A stretch of 64,000 nucleotides of DNA from Daphnia pulex (Eukaryota > Arthropoda > Branchiopoda > Diplostraca > Daphniidae). This document shows positions 22,973-51,406 of the stretch, piece after piece (the first letter of the stretch is position 1; every line of letters begins with the position of its first letter). The notes beneath the pieces are model-generated. The model saw nothing but the letters and a program-made list of their open reading frames with translations. It ran no database searches and was not told the DNA's origin. The position numbers and the translations under genes are program-made. The DNA lies in contig NC_060021.1 of the NCBI RefSeq assembly GCF_021134715.1, positions 8,216,501 to 8,280,500 of the forward strand. The letters are read 5' to 3'.

Positions 22973-24048
22973 TCAACGGATTTTGTTGTTGCTGCGCAGG
23001 TAACGCCAAATGTCGTCGTAGACCTCCTCTTGACTTTCTGCCGAGTCTCTGTCGTCATCCGCCCGGCTCTCGTATTCCGCATGGTTGTCCAACTGTGATT
23101 CGTCGGCCGGAATCGCTTGACTCCGCTTCTTGCGGCCACTGAGACGGAGGAAAGCAAATTTAGCAATTAGGAACAGCTTCGAATCAATCGCTGATTGTAT
23201 ATATTTGAACAGCAAATTCAATTTGTTCTATTGTATCAAAGAGATGATGCCTTGTCAAATATGTATACAATGTCTTCGCGAGCAAACGGAAGAAAGTCAG
23301 CGAATTACAATGAAATAGATATATTAGTAGACTCACATTTTGGATGGATCGACGTAGCCGTAGTATTTGCCCGATGACGACGTCATTTTGCCTTTGAGAC
23401 GGGCAATGGCCAATAAAGTCTGTAACTCTGCCAGTCGTTGATCGGACACTCTCTTCTGCCGGCTACCCCTGCTGCCATAACGTAAACAAATCGACGATCA
23501 ATATACTGAAATGCGATTCGTCCATAGCCAATTTACTGCTGCACAGTCATGTGTCAAATTTGAAAACGTCTGATGAACGAAATCGTTCAAATTAAGCCAA
23601 TCAAATTCTATCCCCGAATTGACAAGAGTCTAAAATGCTAATGCGTTACAGACTGTAATCAGATTACATTGAATCTTGCTGAAGGCTAATGCTGAATGCA
23701 AATTTGATACAAGTTGACGAGGAAATTGGAAACTCACCTCCAAGACGGGTATGCCTGAATGGAGACGGCCAGTAGGGCGAGAACGACCACCGCTATGAGA
23801 ACCGAATGTGCCAGTTTCTGATGCATTTTTCTTCTCTGATGTGTGTGTTTCCTTGGATGCTGCTACTCTGTTACTCTTCTCCGGTTGTTCGTCCTTAAGG
23901 AAATGTCGATACCAAAAAGTTCTCGCTTGGTATTGGACGACGAACGAAGTTGCAAAAAAAAAAAACGTTCGAAAAACTTTCACAGTTCCTTGAAAACTCC
24001 TTTTGACAAGAAGATCAAGTGTTGAGGTCGACAGTTGAGACGCTTACA
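22973..24048 (-). CDS. Prohormone/neuropeptide-like precursor, multi-exon
   Basis: Not matched to a named family with certainty. The coding exons are 23,826-23,738, 23,468-23,337 and 23,138-22,973, all with GT-AG borders; together they give 128 residues. A probable 5' untranslated exon ends at 24,048 (GTAAGC donor) and rejoins at 23,893. Residues 1-25 form a classic signal peptide (MHQKLAHS, then a Val/Leu/Ala core, ending SIQA). A dibasic site, QKR at 34-36, is followed by a 38-residue peptide (37-74) that starts VSDQRLAELQTLL and ends GYVDPSKI. Then come Gly75, the amide donor, and RKKR (76-79). An acidic 49-residue tail ends the protein. The layout predicts a secreted, C-terminally amidated hormone. 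LLAIAR at 48-53, the length and the Ile-amide end faintly recall CRF-like diuretic hormone (DH44). That is inference only; a novel peptide is equally possible. Confidence 0.72.
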
Positions 24049-24377
24049 CTTCGGCCGGAACTGGTGACTCTGCGTTGGAAGAGTAATCCGAACCGAAATC
24101 CAATAAACAGGTTGTTATGCTATTCAATGTTTTGTCTGTCGCTCCGAAATCGTCCCCAAAACTAATTTGAGAGACAGTAGTGATGGTGTCTTTGCGATAG
24201 AAGAGGAATAAGTTAGATGAAGATGAGCGTGATCAAAAAAGGCGCTGCTGGGGACTACGGGGAGTGAATGTGTATAACAGCTGTTGCTGAGTGTGCTGCT
24301 CGGCTTGACTTGGTGAACTAGCTTCCGCGACCAGCTCTGCTGTCTGTGTGACGTGCCTTGGTGCGGGTCTCGTGGTA

Positions 24378-24386
24378 TTTTATATA
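24378..24386 (-). promoter_or_regulatory. TATA box of the prohormone-like gene
   Basis: On the minus strand the sequence reads TATATAAAA, 330 bp upstream of the 5' untranslated exon's donor. A start site about 30 bp further on, near 24,350, would give a leader of about 300 bases ending at the GTAAGC donor (24,047). The assignment rests on position and motif only. Confidence 0.55.
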
Positions 24387-39048: not shown

Positions 39049-41537
39049 ATGGTGTCGTGTATGATGAGACAGAGTGACGAAAAACACATTCTTGGAACTG
39101 CGTCAACAGAAATCCTTTTGTGGTCTTCCAGACGAGATCTGATTGCCGTCTCAAACAGCTCTGGTGAAAACTTGCAATCCTTCTTTTTCCCATTGTGTTA
39201 CTATGATAATAAAATTTGTTTTGTATGTTATTTTCTTGTAGGTGAGGTTTTTCTGAGAAGGTTGTCATGGAGCAAAGTTTGGAAGCTTTCTAAAAGAGGT
39301 GATGGTGTCAAAGTCACAGCGATCGTTTGGAGACCAGACAGTGTGATACTAGCTGTAGGATACAGTTCTGGGCATGTGGTTCTAGTTGACGTTGAATCTG
39401 GAGAAGTAGTACACACATTCAACCCATGTGAGGAACCCATCACAGCTCTTTCCTGGGAAAACTGCAGCACAAGTGTGAAAGAAGAGGCAGACAATTTTTT
39501 GCTGCCAGAACTGCTGCCTCAACCATTGAAAGTTAACTCTTCAAAGCTAGATGCTGGGTCAGCACTTGATGGCGACAAAGGATTGAAACATGAAGAATTA
39601 CTGAGCATTTTGTGGATTGGACTAAAGAATGGGTTAGTTTACGGATTCGCCTTTGGACTCTTTCCTTGCTGCCTTCTAAAACTTTCAGAAATGAGTGGTG
39701 GGAGCGATTCAATCGGACCTGTACGAAGTGTTTTCCCGAATGGTGATCACAGCCAACTGTGTTTACTAGCCGATGTTCGTGCCGGATCCTCAGAAGTTTT
39801 ACTCATGACTGTGGAAACCCCACTCATAACTCATTGTTTGAAAGAGTTGTACGGTCTAGGATTTCTCTATCGGCAGATAACTGGCCTCATGGACTGCCTA
39901 ATCAGTGCTCAGAAAGCTCTACAAGAAGCCTGGGAGGATGCACTAGTCGACCTCGAATCGAAAATGGTTCGCTATGAAAGCAACGACGGCAAGAGTAGCT
40001 TATCTGTCGACTTGATGGAGCTCCTGATGTTTGGCCACGCCGGGATCAAGCTGGAGAAATTTCTTGTTACCGATTTGACTGACAAAGGATTGAAACGAAT
40101 CGGCCAAGCCGTAGAGTTATCCTATAGCAACATGCAGAAACTGCTCATCAAACACATCGTGTGTGCCAACTACCAACTGTCGCACTATTTGACACAACTT
40201 TGCGGGCTGGCCAAACAAGAAGATCGTTTCTCATGCCTCGGCCTCCAAGTCAATTCGTGTTTAGCTGCATACCGGGCGGCCGGCTCTTTTACCGCCAAAA
40301 CCGCTGAGCTTCAACAGGTGATCGATGGTTCTGTCAAGTACCTCAAGACATTCTTCCGCTGGCTTTACGTTACCATCTTGCGCCTCTCGGACGAGCCTAT
40401 CCCACCCGAGCTTGCCACCAGTACCCAGCAAGATGTACGGTTTATCGCCAACTTCCTCGCCAAAGATTTTGAGACCGATGGACAAGTACGTCTGGATCGT
40501 ATTGGGCAATATTTGAGGAATGAGCCGTTGACTTTTGTTGCCAGCTCTAAAACTAGACCCTGGGACATGTTGATAGAAGCTTGTCCATCTATTGCGAATC
40601 TTCAGGACTCGGACTTATTTCAACCCCGTGCTGAACGCTCTCTTGCTCAAGAGTTCGCCCATTTGGAACATCAGGTCAAAGCCAGTTTCGAAGCTATCCC
40701 TTCAGCTGTTGGACAGACTGCGTCGTTGCCGTTTATCACCGACCTGACGTTAGATTGTCCTTCGGACAGTCTGGACAAGATCAGAATCACAACACGATCC
40801 ATCAACCAACCAAAAGATCGGTGTAATCTTCTTGGCTTGACAAATTCGACCACTCATTCTTCAGGATTTTACCTGTTTGAATTCGCCTCCGAGAAGGAAC
40901 GTAAGAACTTGACTCGAGCAGCATTCTTCTCCTTTGGCAAGTGCGACCATCTACCTCCTGGCGAATATAAAATAGCTGATCTGCAGTTCTATAACAACGA
41001 GATTATGTCAGTTTTGCTTTCGATCGAACGCAGCACGAATAGCATCTTCGTACAACTCAGTCTATGTCTGTTACGCGAACATTTGGCTCCCGTTGTGTCA
41101 CGGCGAGGACCTTTTAACTCGTCCTTCCATTCAGACGTTTTCGTTTCATCAGTTCTCAGCCAAGGCAATCTTCGATCAGTGGATGTCAATACCTTTATTG
41201 AAGCAAGCTCGTTTCGTGTCTTAAACGACTTTCAGGCTACTACCCTCGGTCTATCGTCCAGTCGAAAGGTTGCCGCTATCTTTTCTTCGTCAAAAAGGAA
41301 GGTTCGCATATTTGACATGGAAGTTGAAGAGGAAGAAGACGTCGAAGACGAGGATCAGGACATTGAGGATGTTTCAGACTTATCGCACGGTACGTAAAAG
41401 TGAAAACCTGGTTAACTTTCAAATTGTTTATTATTAACAAGGTATGTTAATGGAATGGCATTTTTATCGCAGATATATCAAAAGATGGAGGAAATCAAAA
41501 GGATATCAGCGACGTGGATATGGCCGTCTCTCCCTGA
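39049..41537 (+). CDS. ANAPC4: Anaphase-promoting complex subunit 4
   Basis: Apc4 is a scaffold subunit of the APC/C ubiquitin ligase, which marks securin and cyclins for destruction in mitosis. The exons are 39,049-39,163, 39,242-41,389 and 41,473-41,537, giving 775 residues (human about 808). Splicing restores the family's conserved N-terminus: LLWSSRRDLIAVSNSSG joined to EVFLRRLSW, matching the first WD-like blade (human has SPKRDLIALANTAGEV). IVWRPDSVILAVGY is the next blade. The middle, around DVRFIANFLAKDF and YLRNEPL, is the helical Apc4 domain. The C-terminus is very acidic and ends DVDMAVSP. The first ATG at 39,049 is used; the ATG at 39,061 is an alternative. The last 65-bp exon overlaps the NCAPH2 transcript on the other strand. 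The first intron is 78 bp, free of stops and in frame. Confidence 0.92.
41427..41432 (-). terminator. Poly(A) signal of NCAPH2
   Basis: AATAAA on the minus strand, 142 bases past the NCAPH2 stop. It lies inside ANAPC4 intron 2, so the NCAPH2 3' end runs antisense across the last ANAPC4 exon. Confidence 0.6.
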
Positions 41538-44771: not shown

Positions 44772-47700
44772 ATGTTTGGACAAAATAGACCCACTTTTGG
44801 AGCCCCAACATCAAATACTTTTGGTAATGCATCCAGACAATTATTATTCTTTACCATTGCATAAGCATATTTCATGTTTACAAATGTATCTTATCTTGTC
44901 ATTACGTCACCATTTAAATTTCAACATTTTTTGTTTGCCCTCCATTGTTTGTTGCATTTAGGCGGTTTCGGTACAAATACATCAACAGGATTTGGGCAGT
45001 CTTCGTTTGGGGCAAAGCCAACTGGAACGGCTGCACCAACTTTCCAATCTACAGGTTTTGGATCAAATACCTCGATGTTTGGAAGCACAGGTACTACAAC
45101 AAGCCAACCCTCGGGAGGTTTGTTTGGTACACCTACTGCCACTTTTGGAGCAGCACAACCTACAGCAGGATTTGGAGCACCTGCAACTAATACTGGCTTT
45201 GGAGGTATTTTATGTTTTATAGTTACATTTCATCAAACAGTAGATATCTTTGATGAACTTCATTAATTTGCAATCAAAGAGCACTTAATCATGTTGTTGG
45301 TTTTGTAACAAAAGGATTTGGTGGTGGGACTTCAGGGGGGAGCTTATTTGGAGCCCCTGCTGCTTCAACTGGTATGTTTGGATCTAATACCCAACAAACT
45401 GCCCCTTCAACTGGTACAACTGGCATGTTTGGAGCAGCCACCAATACAGGATTTGGAGCTCAAGCTAAACCTACATTTGGCTTTGGAGCAACTAGTACCT
45501 CCAGTAGCTTGTTTGGACAACCCCAATCCCAGCCCACTCAAACCACCTCACTTTTTGGACAGCCCACAGCACAAGCAACGCCGTCAACGGGTACTGGTTT
45601 GTTTGGGACATCATCTTTTGGTAACACAATTGGGGGATTTGGTGGTACTGGTGGAGCCATTACTGGTACCCCAGTAAAATTCAGTCCTCTAACAGGGACA
45701 GACTCTATGGTATAATATTTATTCATACACATATTTTTCTCTATGAATTATAATTTTCATTTTGTGGTCTTTAGATGAAAAACAATGTCCAAACGACAAT
45801 AAACACACACCATCAGTGTATAACATGCATGAAAGAATATGACAATAAATCTTTGGAAGAACTTAGATTTGAAGACTACTCTGTAGGACGGAAAGGACCG
45901 ACCCCGGGAACCGCACCACAAACTGGAGGATTATTTGGTGGGACCACTACGACTACCCAATCAACTCCGTTATTTGGACAAACTCAACAGACGCCCCTTT
46001 TCGGAACACCAGCACCCAGTAAGTATTTTTCTTGTGTATGATGAACAAAAGAGATAATTCGTATGTATTTAGCTATGGGACAGCCGAGCTTATTTGGACA
46101 GCCTCAACAGCAACAAGCTCAACCTTCGGCCTTTGGAGCAAAACCCATGGGGTTTGGTCAACCTGCTACTTCCACTCAATCATCATTTGGTTTCGGGACG
46201 CCTGCACCTCAACAGCAACAACAGCAGCAACCCAGTCTCTTCGGTCAGCAACAACAAAATAAACCTTTTGGCTCATCGATTTTCGGTCCCCAATCTACGA
46301 GCCAACCCACTCCTGCTTTCGGGACACAAACACCCGCTCCCGCATTTGGATTTGGTGCCCCACAACAGGTAATGATAATATTTTTATTTATTCCTTTTTA
46401 TTTGAGATTGTTTCCTACTTATCGTTTTCTTTTTATTTCTGATTATTGCAGACCAGTCAAAGCTTTTTCAACACTCCAAAGCCAGCAATGGGAGTTCAGA
46501 CTTCAACAGCAGGTTTTGGTTTTCCTCAAACGACAACCACTCAGTCCGCTGGATCCAACATCTTCGGTGCGAAACCAATAACTGGTTTTGGAGCGACACC
46601 TACCCCTGCATTTGGAACTACTCCCGCTCAAACAACGACGCCAGCGTTCGGTGGATTTGGTACATCAGGTTAGATCAGGAAATTGTTTTTGTTGTTTGTT
46701 TGTGTTTGCACCAAAAAAAATTTCGACTGTATTTTTTATAGGTACTACTGGAACTGGGTTGTTCACACCTGGACAAACGGCTTTTGGAGTCAAACCAGCC
46801 GGGCAAACATTTGGTGCGGTGACATCAACTCCGTCGACTCTAGGATTCGGTCAAAATACAATGTTCGGCGGGGCATCGGCTGCAAATGCAAAGCCCAGTC
46901 CATTTGGCGGTACTCCCTTTGGAAGTTCTGGCTTTGGCACTACACCTAGCTTTGGAACAGCTACTGGTGGGATGGGTACTGGCGCTCCCGGTTCACTCTT
47001 TGGGAACACAAGTATTGGAGCACCCTCAACTTCAATGTCTTTCGGAACGACGCAGCCTACTACTGGAACTAGCAGTTCCCAGTTGCCTATTCATCAGTAT
47101 ATCTTGACGCTAAGTGAGATTTCTCAGTCTAGTGATCATCCTCTCTTCCGGAAAATGCTGGAACCGTCAGGTAAGCCACTTCGAATGAACACAGTTGAAC
47201 GCATTTCATTCATTAATTGTTTCATTGCGTTTTCAGGAAAAACAGAAGAATTGATCAAATCAAGCGCCCGTACCAGTTTGTCCAACGGGGCTGCACCAAC
47301 TCCTCCTCAATACCGTATCTCACCCCTTCCCTCGAATAAAATCCGCACGAAAGCTTTGCTTAACGGATCCTCGACTGGTGGTGGAAGACGTTCGATTTTT
47401 GAAGGATTGAGCGACGAAGAAGAAGGTGAGGAGAACGGAGCTGGATCGGAAGCGAAAACAGATTTCTTCGTACCTCGACGAAGTGTCAAGAAACTTCAAC
47501 TGAAAGCCATTTCCCTCGACACTACCGTCGATACTGATAATAAGCCGGACGATGATGCTGAACCCATCAAATCAGCACCGTTAATCACACCTTCTGAAGA
47601 AAGACCTGTTGTCCTAGACTCTCGACCAGATCTTAGAGTCCGAGAAGAACTTGATGATAGTTTGACTGTGTTGAAGATACGTAGACCAACTGTTGCGTTC

Positions 47701-50700
47701 CTTAACCAATCAGCGATGCTAGAACGCAGTAGTATGCTGGATGAAACTGGCCTTGGAGAAGGGGAAGTCACTGTTGCAGAGGAAATCAGTGAAACAGTCG
47801 AAGAAGAAATCGTGCCTCCTCACCCTGCTGGCATAGTTTTACGTCGTTGCGGATATTCGACAATGCCGACCATGGAAGACTTGGCAATCAAAGGATTGGA
47901 TGAAAATGGGAAGTGTATTATTACTTCGTTTTCTATTATTCGTCAGGGCTATGGTCGAATATTTTTCGAAGGCCCTTTGGATGTCGCGAACTTGAATCTG
48001 GATGAAATTGGTTAGTGACCTCACAATAATTCTTTAAAAAAACGTATTGTTAACCCTCTTTTTTTGTTGTCTAGTATTGTTTCGCCACAAGGAAGTGACT
48101 GTATACCCCGATGATTCAAAGAAACCTCCTGAAGGAGAAGGACTAAATCGCAAAGCTGAAATCACTTTGGACCGCGTCTGGCCTGTAGATAAATCCACTG
48201 GAGACTACATCACCAATCCTGAGAGATTAGCTGTTTTGCGTTACGAAGAACGACTTGCCCGAGCTGCCCATCGCCTACAAGCTAAATTCATCGAGTACCG
48301 ACCTGAAACAGGATCCTGGGTGTTTCGAGTGAACCATTTCTCCAAATATGGATTGGAGGATTCTGATGAAGAAAGTGAACTTCCAGCCGCTCCACCCAAA
48401 GCCGCTGCTGCTCTTCCAACTACACAAGGCCAGGCAGCTCAAACCACCGTCATTGGTGCTGGTATGTTTATCCCCTTTCCGATTTTAGTTTTGTTTATCT
48501 AACGTTTGTCGTTGTTTCCATTTTTGTAGGTATGGGATTAGGAGGATTGTCTGCGACTATTGCTCAAGTCACCTCAATGTCGATGACATTTGAAGAAGAT
48601 ATGGGTGTCGAAGACGATTTGGTTATTCCTCGGTTCGCTGATGAGTTCGATGACTCGGTGCGCGTCCAGTCACCTCCGCCCGTCAGTACGCAGTTGGCCA
48701 GAACATTGGGCATGCCTTCTCAGCGAGTTCAAATTATGAAAGCATCTTTCTTCGATGCCGATAACGATTATATGCAAGACGTTTCCATGGGTAAGTTTGT
48801 GCTCATTATTTTTATTAGAAAATTTGCTCAAATTGAAATATACATCTCCTTTCAGGTATTGGAAGCTTCTTCGATCAATCTGTGCGGATGTCTCAGTCGA
48901 TTGCACCAAGAAAAGACATGAGTCGCCTCTTCAAAGATTCCCCTGCGCAGAGTCCAGGAAGCCTCTTCAAGTCTAGCGCCATTCCTGGAATCCAACAACC
49001 AGAGGACCTTAATAGGTCGCATGTACCGATGGATCAATCCTTCACTGCCATAGCTAAACTGCAACAGACTACTGAAATCGAAAACTTGTCAACTTACGTC
49101 AGATTGGAACACGCCCGAAATTCAGAACAATGCCGAAAAGTGGTACCACGATTCGCCACAGCTGAGATTCCCCTCTCTCGGTCCATCATTCGGGACAAAT
49201 TTGGAATTGTTATGGATGCTTCCTTGTTCCAGAATCGTCGGTCACGTGTAGGATGGGGTCCCGATTTGCAACACTTGGAGCTCTCGACCACAACTCGACT
49301 CTCACTATTATCGGTGAAAACGTCTGATCTGAAGCAGAACATCGATCTGGAAGAGGATATTTTCAGTGTTGACAGCAAAAATCCATACGTTGTCTTACTA
49401 GCGACGTATTTGAACTTTACAAAGGCAACTGTAGTTGACGGTGTGCCAACTCTGCGTCCAGTACCAGGATCGCAAGCTGTTGGTTTCCTCAAAGCAGCCA
49501 CCGAGAGCTTACTCTCCAAACTGAAGAACAAGGGCAATCCGGAGGCGTTGCAGCTGCTCAACTATATGGGCAAAGTTTGGAATCTTTGCATCGCTCTTTG
49601 GGGTCCTTTGGACGTCGAGGCTGGTTCGCACGCGGAAACTATGGCTAGGAAGGAAACTTTGACGCAGTGGCTGGAAGAAGCTACCATGGAGACAAATATC
49701 ACCGGTCTGAATGAAGAAGAAGAGGTATCCATAACTTTTTTTTTAATGTTGTGTTTATGTAAATTGTAAATCACTTGTTTGTTTCGGTGTTAGGTCTTGA
49801 CTCTACTAGCTCGCCACGACGTTGCTGGCGCTGCTCGCCTTGCTCACAAGAACGGCGAATACTATCTGGCGTTGCTGATTTCACAAGCAGGATCGTCCCT
49901 GGCTTTCAAGGGAATGCTTCAACGCCAACTGAACCTCTGGACGGAAAACCGCGCCGATGCCTTCATCACTCAAGATCGTCTTCGCGTCTTTGCCTTATTG
50001 GCTGGAATCACCGTCTGGGAAACCACTGAGGGCAAGATCAACACCTGTGAAGGAATGGATTGGATCAAGGCATTGGCCCATCATCTATGGTACGTCATTT
50101 CCCCGGTTGGGAGCATCACTGACGCCTTGCTCGAGTACGAGGCCGCTTGCGGAATATCGTCAGATCAGAACGAAGCTGAAATCTATGCCAGTGAGCCAGC
50201 TCCTTCCTATTCACAAACATCTACTTCGTTCAGGTAAGCCTTTTTATTCGTTGATTAACCATTGGAACTGTCATTTAGGTTTTGAAATTTCTCTTTTCAG
50301 AGACTTGTGTTTCCAACTGATTTCACTCTACTGCCACCGTACGACTCCGCTGGAAAAGTTGGTCAATCCTCTGAGCCACACATGGAACGTATGCGAAAAT
50401 GTTTTGTCTTGGTTGCTGTGGCAGCAACTCCAAGCCTTGGGCTACTCACATCTTTCGGAAACTGCTGCTGCCCAGTTGTCAATTGCGTTCGCTTCCCAGT
50501 TGGAAAATTGTGGCCTCTGGCATTGGGCCATTTTTGTTGCGATGCATCTGAAATCGTCACCGTCTTTCGTTCAAGCGTTTGTCGAAGACATCCTCGGCCG
50601 TCATATCGGACAAGAAAAGGACGAGCAGTGCGAGCGTTTCCTGGTCGAAAAACTTTGCGTTCCGTCTCAGTGGATCGAGAAATGTCGAGCAGTTAAGGCG

Positions 50701-51406
50701 CTCTATGCGTTTAATCCGAAACTGCAGGCCACTTCCCTGCTTGCCGCTGGACTTTACAGCCAAGCCCATGACGTCATCTGTGATGAACTTGCTCCGGAAG
50801 CTATCCTGTCTGAATCCTATCAGGAGTTGGAGGAACTCTTGGCTCCCTTGGCTGACCCGGAACGATTCAGTACGATTGCCGATTGGTACCTAAAGGGCAA
50901 GGTTTATTGGAATTACATCACAGTCGTCAAAGCCGTAGATCGAATTTTAAAGCAGGTATTGCATTTTTTCTTATCTTTCTTTGATTGATTGTGGCCGTAT
51001 CTGTAAATCTAAATTCGTTTCACGCAGGATAATTCCAGTGAAAAGGGAATGCAACTAGAAAAATTAACACCAGACTTGACATCTCTCTGCAACTTGGTGT
51101 CCTCTCTACCCGTACCCTCCGCCAAGCACAGGCTGGTTCGCACGGAAATAGCCCAGAAAGCGGCTTACATTTTGAAAAACGTTATCGGACTCCAGGTAAA
51201 GTTGCTGATTGAAGTCGAAAAAATGCCTGGTCATTTTAGCTTAAATTTATTTGATCTCTCATTAGTCGGTCAACGCATCCGAGGAAATTGTGGTCCCCCC
51301 TCGTTTTGTCCTGCCGCAACTCCGCCAGCTTCCTGTGACGCAGGATTACTCGCTCTCAGAGCTTAACAACGTTGTTCGTGCGTACTTTCTCGAACTTAAG
51401 GTTTAA
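44772..51406 (+). CDS. NUP98: Nucleoporin Nup98-Nup96 polyprotein
   Basis: The product is cut by itself into Nup98, a mobile FG nucleoporin, and Nup96, a scaffold of the Y-shaped Nup107 complex. Fifteen exons join in frame: 44,772-44,823, 44,962-45,204, 45,315-45,709, 45,775-46,018, 46,073-46,368, 46,452-46,668, 46,742-47,170, 47,237-48,010, 48,075-48,461, 48,530-48,790, 48,856-49,724, 49,794-50,233, 50,301-50,955, 51,028-51,195 and 51,266-51,406. They give 1,856 residues (human about 1,817). Residues 1-220 and about 280-620 are FG/GLFG-type repeats. The Rae1-binding GLEBS segment spans about 222-275 ([20 protein letters not shown]). The autoproteolytic domain is about 820-972, with the cut in NHF/SKYG between Phe972 and Ser973. 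Nup96 (973-1,856) carries [11 protein letters not shown] and a helical solenoid. All exon borders are GT-AG. Confidence 0.96.
48335..48343 (+). other. Nup98/Nup96 self-cleavage site (His-Phe-Ser)
   Basis: CAT TTC TCC encodes His-Phe-Ser within VNHFSKYGL. In this family the peptide bond before the serine is cleaved by the protein's own autoproteolytic domain, so the cut falls between bases 48,340 and 48,341. The catalytic triplet is intact, so processing should be normal. Confidence 0.93.

What the first reader, a model, noticed from the sequence alone, without database searches (positions are those of the whole stretch)
22973..24386. Unannotated amidated-prohormone gene split into short exons
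Three short exons with GT-AG borders assemble into a 128-residue protein with a signal peptide, a KR site, a 38-residue peptide, an amidating glycine and a tetrabasic RKKR, followed by an acidic tail. A TATA box and a spliced 5' leader are also visible. The peptide (VSDQRLAELQTLL ... GYVDPSKI-amide) is not one I can name. LLAIAR, the 38-residue length and the Ile-amide end recall CRF-like DH44, but the Tyr-Tyr-Gly-Tyr-Val region does not. It is either a divergent DH44-like hormone or a new family.
Basis: partly seen in the sequence, partly recalled or inferred. Interest (0 to 1): 0.75.

Follow-up and report, generated by a model that had tools for sequence, protein, structure and literature searches.

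The report
Daphnia gene for iPTH-family peptide hormone
This water-flea gene is real and encodes the precursor of a known arthropod peptide hormone, insect parathyroid hormone (iPTH, also called PXXXamide), so it is most likely a member of a described family and not a new hormone or a DH44.

Summary
Three minus-strand exons (23826-23738, 23468-23337, 23138-22973) join at GT-AG borders into a 128-residue secreted precursor with KR, a 38-residue peptide ending PSKI, an amidating Gly and RKKR. Daphnia pulicaria LOC124311506 differs at one residue; three more Daphnia have full-length homologues.

The interpretation does not hold. A profile search finds 207 homologues; of the 120 listed, those with an organism name shown are arthropods. 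Their anatomy is that published for iPTH/PXXXamide, ligand of the class B1 receptor iPTHR in Tribolium (PMC7224569). The printed Tribolium C-terminus matches family members at up to 10 of 14 residues (0 of 2000 shuffles reach 10), but the Daphnia peptide itself at only 4 of 14. One such gene was found in this genome, plus a separate weak CRF/DH44-like locus and a receptor locus of the secretin/glucagon/PTH group.

A figure legend in PMC8398477 already lists D. pulex among aligned PXXXamide/QSamide peptides. The Daphnia oddity is a rewritten stretch, MTSSSGKYYGY where the family majority reads LVTVPVGFG. Expression, amidation and receptor activation were not testable.

The parts
24376..24386 (-). 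TATA box (TATATAAAATA); expected transcription start about 30 nt downstream
   Evidence: pattern; sequence; start site inferred
23827..24355 (-). putative 5' leader, no ATG in 529 nt; splicing not established (one GTAAG donor-like site at 24047)
23738..23826 (-). exon 1: start codon, signal peptide, AYPSW
   Evidence: conserved in Daphnia homologues
23337..23468 (-). exon 2: RQKR cleavage site and the 38-residue mature peptide VSDQRLAEL...YVDPSKI (last codon completed by exon 3)
22973..23138 (-). exon 3: amidating Gly, RKKR cleavage site, acidic C-terminal spacer peptide, stop codon

Best explanation
The gene is the Daphnia orthologue of the iPTH (PXXXamide) neuropeptide precursor. The signal peptide directs the precursor into the secretory pathway. 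A prohormone convertase cuts after RQKR and at RKKR, and the exposed Gly is converted to a C-terminal amide. This gives the 38-residue VSDQRLAELQTLLAIARLKGKMTSSSGKYYGYVDPSKI-amide, with an acidic spacer peptide left over. The amide would act as a neurohormone on a class B1 (secretin-type, cluster B / iPTHR) receptor, for which a candidate gene lies on another contig of the same genome. By analogy with Tribolium it would take part in cuticle maturation at the moult and in fecundity. Shown here: gene structure, precursor anatomy, family conservation and presence of a candidate receptor locus. Inferred: expression, cleavage, amidation, receptor pairing and physiology.
For: Gene structure. Full-length Daphnia homologues. 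207 homologues with the A1 profile; the named ones among the 120 listed include hymenopterans, mayflies, dragonflies, termites, crickets, bugs, thrips, beetles, decapods, an amphipod and Artemia, the rest being unnamed sequences. Of 131 proteins retrieved (isoforms included) carry the SD-x-R-x-AE core and a G+basic end; in these, Pro is at -4 in 105 and KR or RR precedes the peptide in 116. Xie et al. (PMC7224569) describe the same anatomy for iPTH: signal peptide, KR, conserved SD, mildly conserved Pro at -4, amide, GXX. Their printed Tribolium C-terminus (the leading Cys left out, taken as a coupling residue) matches family members at up to 10 of 14 positions, 0 of 2000 shuffles reaching 10. 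Receptor pieces at about C1:4687320-4688127 match secretin, glucagon, VIP, GIP, GLP, PACAP, GHRH and PTH receptors, with no CRF or calcitonin receptor among the 60 of 92 hits shown. This fits 'cluster B', which was reported in D. pulex (PMC3961327, passages). The AlphaFold2 model puts a helix at residues 31-60, pLDDT about 88 over 41-50.
Against: The Daphnia C-terminal 14 residues match Tribolium iPTH at only 4 of 14, against a mean of 7.1 over the 118; the link rests on the N-terminal half and on intermediate species. The best receptor matches are secretin and glucagon receptors, with PTH receptors lower, and no receptor tree was built. A simple hydrophobic-moment calculation on residues 1-20 gives no amphipathic signal (0.04; 98.7% of 5000 shuffles equal or higher). 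The model as a whole is poor (mean pLDDT 64, pTM 0.21). I did not retrieve the full Tribolium precursor. No transcripts, peptidomics or receptor assay were available.
Confidence: 0.94

Rival explanations
1. A divergent DH44 (CRF-like diuretic hormone), acting on a CRF-type receptor.
For: Length of 38, Ile-amide end and a leucine-rich helix; the genome has a class B1 receptor locus whose best matches are CRF receptors (C2:3854219-3854928).
Against: CRF is not listed for the protein at E up to 10, nor among the 17 families listed for 38 family members at E up to 1. Another locus carries the CRF/DH44-like peptide (weak score). The relatives' conserved features are those of iPTH.
Confidence: 0.02
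2. A hormone family not yet described.
For: No Pfam match above cut-off; no hormone name appears in the source names shown for the hits, which are cut short in the listings.
Against: Described as PXXXamide (cuttlefish, per PMC7224569 and PMC8398477) and iPTH (PMC7224569); D. pulex is listed in an alignment of these peptides (legend only, PMC8398477).
Confidence: 0.02
3. A secreted protein whose conserved stretch is not a processed hormone, or a non-expressed gene.
For: No RNA or peptide data could be checked here. In PMC9552230 iPTH could not be confirmed by mass spectrometry in Zophobas atratus (passages).
Against: Intact frame and splice sites, full-length conservation within Daphnia, and G75 and the KR site invariant in 38 aligned sequences. 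iPTH of Tenebrio molitor was confirmed by Orbitrap mass spectrometry in the same paper.
Confidence: 0.02

Closest known systems
iPTH / PXXXamide of insects (Tribolium castaneum, Xie et al. 2020, PMC7224569)
   Same: Signal peptide, then KR, SD near the peptide N-terminus, Pro at -4, C-terminal amide signal G plus basic residues.
   Different: Daphnia reads MTSSSGKYYGY where the majority consensus of 38 aligned relatives reads LVTVPVGFG; only 4 of the last 14 residues equal Tribolium's. 38 residues, where 90 of 118 relatives have 37.
QSGamide / QSamide of annelids, molluscs and brachiopods
   Same: Stated in PMC8557429 and PMC8398477 to be orthologous or related to iPTH/PXXXamide (passages).
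   Different: No lophotrochozoan sequence was compared here.
DH44 / CRF-like diuretic hormone
   Same: Amidated peptide of about 40 residues, leucine-rich helix, class B1 ligand type (recalled).
   Different: No CRF-domain match; a CRF/DH44-like locus, scoring under the cut-off, exists elsewhere in the genome.
Vertebrate PTH / PTHrP / TIP39
   Same: Ligand of an orthologous receptor group, according to PMC7224569.
   Different: No match to a PTH chain in the PDB by sequence; Xie et al. give under 12% identity between Tribolium iPTH and the human peptides.

Membership tests
iPTH / PXXXamide | signal peptide followed by a KR site directly before the peptide | tested here: met
   RQKR at 33-36 after a hydrophobic N-terminus; KR or RR in 116 of 118 relatives. 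Signal peptide judged from sequence and an N-terminal helix in the model; no signal-peptide predictor was run.
iPTH / PXXXamide | conserved SD near the peptide N-terminus | tested here: met
   VSDQRLAEL; S38, D39, Q40, R41, A43, E44 and L45 invariant in 38 aligned sequences, chosen from 131
iPTH / PXXXamide | Pro at -4 before the amide (mildly conserved according to Xie et al.) | tested here: met
   PSKI-G; Pro in 105 of 118 relatives
iPTH / PXXXamide | amidation and cleavage signal G plus basic residues | tested here: met
   G-RKKR; G75 and R79 invariant in 38 sequences
iPTH / PXXXamide | direct sequence match of the Daphnia peptide to the tested Tribolium peptide | tested here: inconclusive
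   Only the last 14 Tribolium residues were in print text; Daphnia matches 4 of 14. Full Tribolium sequence not compared.
iPTH / PXXXamide | match of the tested Tribolium peptide to the family that holds the Daphnia peptide | tested here: met
   Up to 10 of 14 with four rows from three species (a dragonfly and two wasps), mean 7.1 over 118; 0 of 2000 shuffles of the Tribolium stretch reach 10
iPTH / PXXXamide | a class B1 receptor of the secretin/glucagon/PTH group (cluster B) in the same genome | tested here: met
   Pieces at about C1:4687320-4688127 match this group, with a hormone-receptor-domain piece at C1:4689434-4689535; cluster B reported for D. pulex in PMC3961327. No tree was built, so orthology to iPTHR is likely, not proven.
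iPTH / PXXXamide | activation of iPTHR by the peptide | not testable with these tools
   needs a receptor assay
DH44 / CRF | CRF-family sequence domain (PF00473) | tested here: not met
   not listed at E up to 10 for the window protein (filters drop most matches above about 0.1); genome search with PF00473 gave 3 weak places, none in this gene

The most novel reading that the evidence does not exclude
In the Daphnia lineage the stretch before the C-terminus of an otherwise strongly conserved arthropod hormone has been replaced (KYYGYVDPSKI in place of VPVGFGRVDPxKI). The pocket of the Daphnia cluster-B receptor would have co-evolved, giving a lineage-private hormone-receptor pair controlling carapace moulting and egg output.
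Probability: 0.15. Interest if true: 0.4.

Novelty: already known. Interest (0 to 1): 0.2.

Why it matters
Naming the gene turns an 'uncharacterized protein' of Daphnia and of many other arthropods in these search results into a testable hormone. Daphnia would be a good place to test whether iPTH controls cuticle and fecundity outside insects. The finding itself adds no new kind of system.

Tried and rejected
DH44: rejected. Vertebrate PTH or any solved-structure relative by sequence: none for the single protein at E up to 10; the profile gave only two HNF1 entries at E 0.5-0.6, which are chance. Pfam: nothing above cut-off for the window protein; its best match, CD34 at E 0.092, covers the hydrophobic N-terminus and is chance. 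A second iPTH gene in the same genome: not found with the Daphnia precursor, a mayfly-type mature peptide or a D. galeata variant, within the tool's limited first look. A spliced 5' leader: neither shown nor excluded. Searching papers for the peptide string itself gave nothing. The bacterial promoter/terminator scan is irrelevant to a eukaryote and was ignored. The hydrophobic-moment test went against a simple amphipathic helix and is kept as evidence against. None of five polyadenylation hexamers was found in 22972-21900, so the 3' end of the transcript is not placed. A third protein search, from a rove beetle homologue, was meant to find the Tribolium precursor by name and did not (27 hits).

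Full report
What is there. The window lies in a 133-Mb, 13-contig genome at contig 5, 8.22-8.28 Mb. On the minus strand, exons 23826-23738, 23468-23337 and 23138-22973 join at GT-AG borders into a 387-nt frame of 128 codons plus stop. The protein reads: hydrophobic signal, AYPSWRGSRQKR, VSDQRLAELQTLLAIARLKGKMTSSSGKYYGYVDPSKI, G, RKKR, acidic tail. A TATATAA lies at 24386, and the 529 nt between the inferred start and the ATG hold no ATG, as do 60 of 1000 shuffles. A spliced leader is therefore possible but not needed.

It is conserved. The first protein search gave 13 hits, among them complete 127-128-residue precursors in D. pulicaria, D. galeata, D. carinata and D. sinensis (99, 90, 81 and 80% identity) and precursors of a sawfly (Neodiprion) and a katydid (Anabrus). 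A profile of 8 sequences found 207 proteins, of which 120 were listed. The listed ones with an organism name shown are arthropods: several insect orders, decapods, an amphipod and Artemia; the others are unnamed. In an alignment of 38 sequences, chosen from 131, K35, R36, S38-R41, A43-L45, T47, G75 and R79 are invariant (position 42 is nearly invariant). These are the cleavage site, the N-terminal core, the amidating Gly and a cleavage-site Arg.

What family. Of the 131 proteins retrieved carry the core plus a G+basic end, some of them isoforms of one gene. The 13 dropped are partial, unspliced or exon-skipped models, five proteins with a variant core (three of them named thrips), and models that missed the end pattern. 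In the 118, Pro stands at -4 in 105, Asp or Asn at -5 in 117, Ile at -1 in 96, and KR or RR precedes the peptide in 116 (SD and G+basic are required by the pattern and so not counted). Xie et al. 2020 (PMC7224569; abstract, first part of the Results, Discussion and Methods read) describe iPTH, formerly PXXXamide, with this anatomy and show that it activates two class B1 receptors of Tribolium (EC50 63 and 413 nM). Their antigen, the C-terminal 14 residues of Tribolium iPTH, matches four rows of the family at 10 of 14 (Ladona, Microctonus and two isoforms of Venturia), with a mean of 7.1 over 118. Shuffled versions never exceed 9 in 2000 trials. The Daphnia peptide itself shares only 4 of those 14, so the link to Tribolium runs through the shared N-terminal core and intermediates.

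Not DH44. The CRF Pfam family does not match. The same genome has, at C1:6251576, a CRF/DH44-like peptide (LSIISPIEALRSRLRLEML... followed by GKRRKR). It scores 19.3 bits, under the curated cut-off of 22.1, so this rests partly on reading the sequence.

Receptor. Joined pieces at about C1:4687320-4688127 (minus strand) match secretin (E 1.7e-32), glucagon, VIP, GIP, PACAP, GLP, GHRH and PTH receptors (best PTH receptor 3.2e-23), and none of the 60 shown of 92 hits is a CRF or calcitonin receptor. Pieces at C2:3854219-3854928 behave differently and match CRF receptors best, then calcitonin and PTH1 receptors. The first pattern is what PMC3961327 calls cluster B, which it reports from D. pulex (passages). 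No tree was built, so orthology is likely, not proven.

How it works. Most likely: secretion, convertase cleavage, amidation, and release as a neurohormone acting on the cluster-B receptor. In Tribolium, receptor RNAi disturbs cuticle maturation and fecundity, whereas RNAi of the peptide gene itself gave no phenotype (PMC7224569), so the physiology is uncertain even there. AlphaFold2 predicts a helix over 31-60 (pLDDT about 88 in 41-50), with a poor model overall. A helical N-terminal half fits class B1 ligands (recalled), but the hydrophobic-moment test found no amphipathy.

Known or new. The full-text searches lead to PMC8398477, whose Figure 5 legend lists 'Dappu: Daphnia pulex' in an alignment of QSamide/PXXXamide peptides (legend and passages seen, not the figure). 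Since one such locus was found in this genome, that row should be this gene. I therefore score it as already known, with the caveat that the database entry of D. pulicaria still calls it uncharacterized. What remains peculiar is the Daphnia replacement of the VTVPVGFG-like stretch. It is identical in the D. pulicaria and window proteins and nearly so in three more Daphnia, and partly shared by an unnamed homologue, P0008. Other unnamed homologues with the same AYPSW/AYPTW start differ: P0024, P0026 and P0038 keep a more ordinary stretch such as NVQVGYGFIDPNKI, and P0020 has another variant, SSYGFLRIDPAKI. The change may therefore be confined to part of the branchiopods, but the species of these four are not named.

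Noticed in passing
G000:C1:6251576-6251683 (+), locus L050: CRF/DH44-like peptide followed by G and KRRKR, perhaps the true DH44 gene of this genome; Pfam CRF score is below cut-off.
   Followed up: partly
G000:C1:4687320-4689535 (-), loci L020, L031, L032, L035: Multi-exon class B1 receptor of the secretin/glucagon/PTH group, candidate iPTH receptor.
   Followed up: partly
proteins P0007, P0010 (D. galeata) and P0013 (unnamed source): Extra iPTH-like models with a variant signal peptide (QKQAHSVFLAVVV) and missing or altered mature-peptide exon; no such copy found in this genome (run with P0010 only). Possibly recent, degenerating duplicates in D. galeata or its relatives, or gene-model errors.
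   Followed up: partly
protein P0032 (Camponotus floridanus): One ant model holds two iPTH-like units in tandem, recalling the oyster gene that splices between QSamide and PXXXamide exons (PMC8398477); may be alternative exons read through by the gene model.
   Followed up: no
proteins P0058 and P0083 (Ischnura elegans): A damselfly has two distinct iPTH precursors under two gene numbers, suggesting a duplication.
   Followed up: no
proteins P0020, P0024, P0026, P0038 (unnamed sources): iPTH precursors starting like Daphnia's (AYPSW/AYPTW) but with a different, in three cases more ordinary, C-terminal half; possible intermediates in the Daphnia change.
   Followed up: no
window 39049-41397 (+): Anaphase-promoting complex subunit 4 gene (Pfam ANAPC4 E 3.4e-49).
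   Followed up: yes
window about 44870-50990 (+): Nup98-96 gene with FG repeats (read), autopeptidase and Nup96 domain.
   Followed up: yes
window 25062 and 22793 (-): Perfect CRE palindromes TGACGTCA upstream and downstream of the gene; function untested.
   Followed up: no
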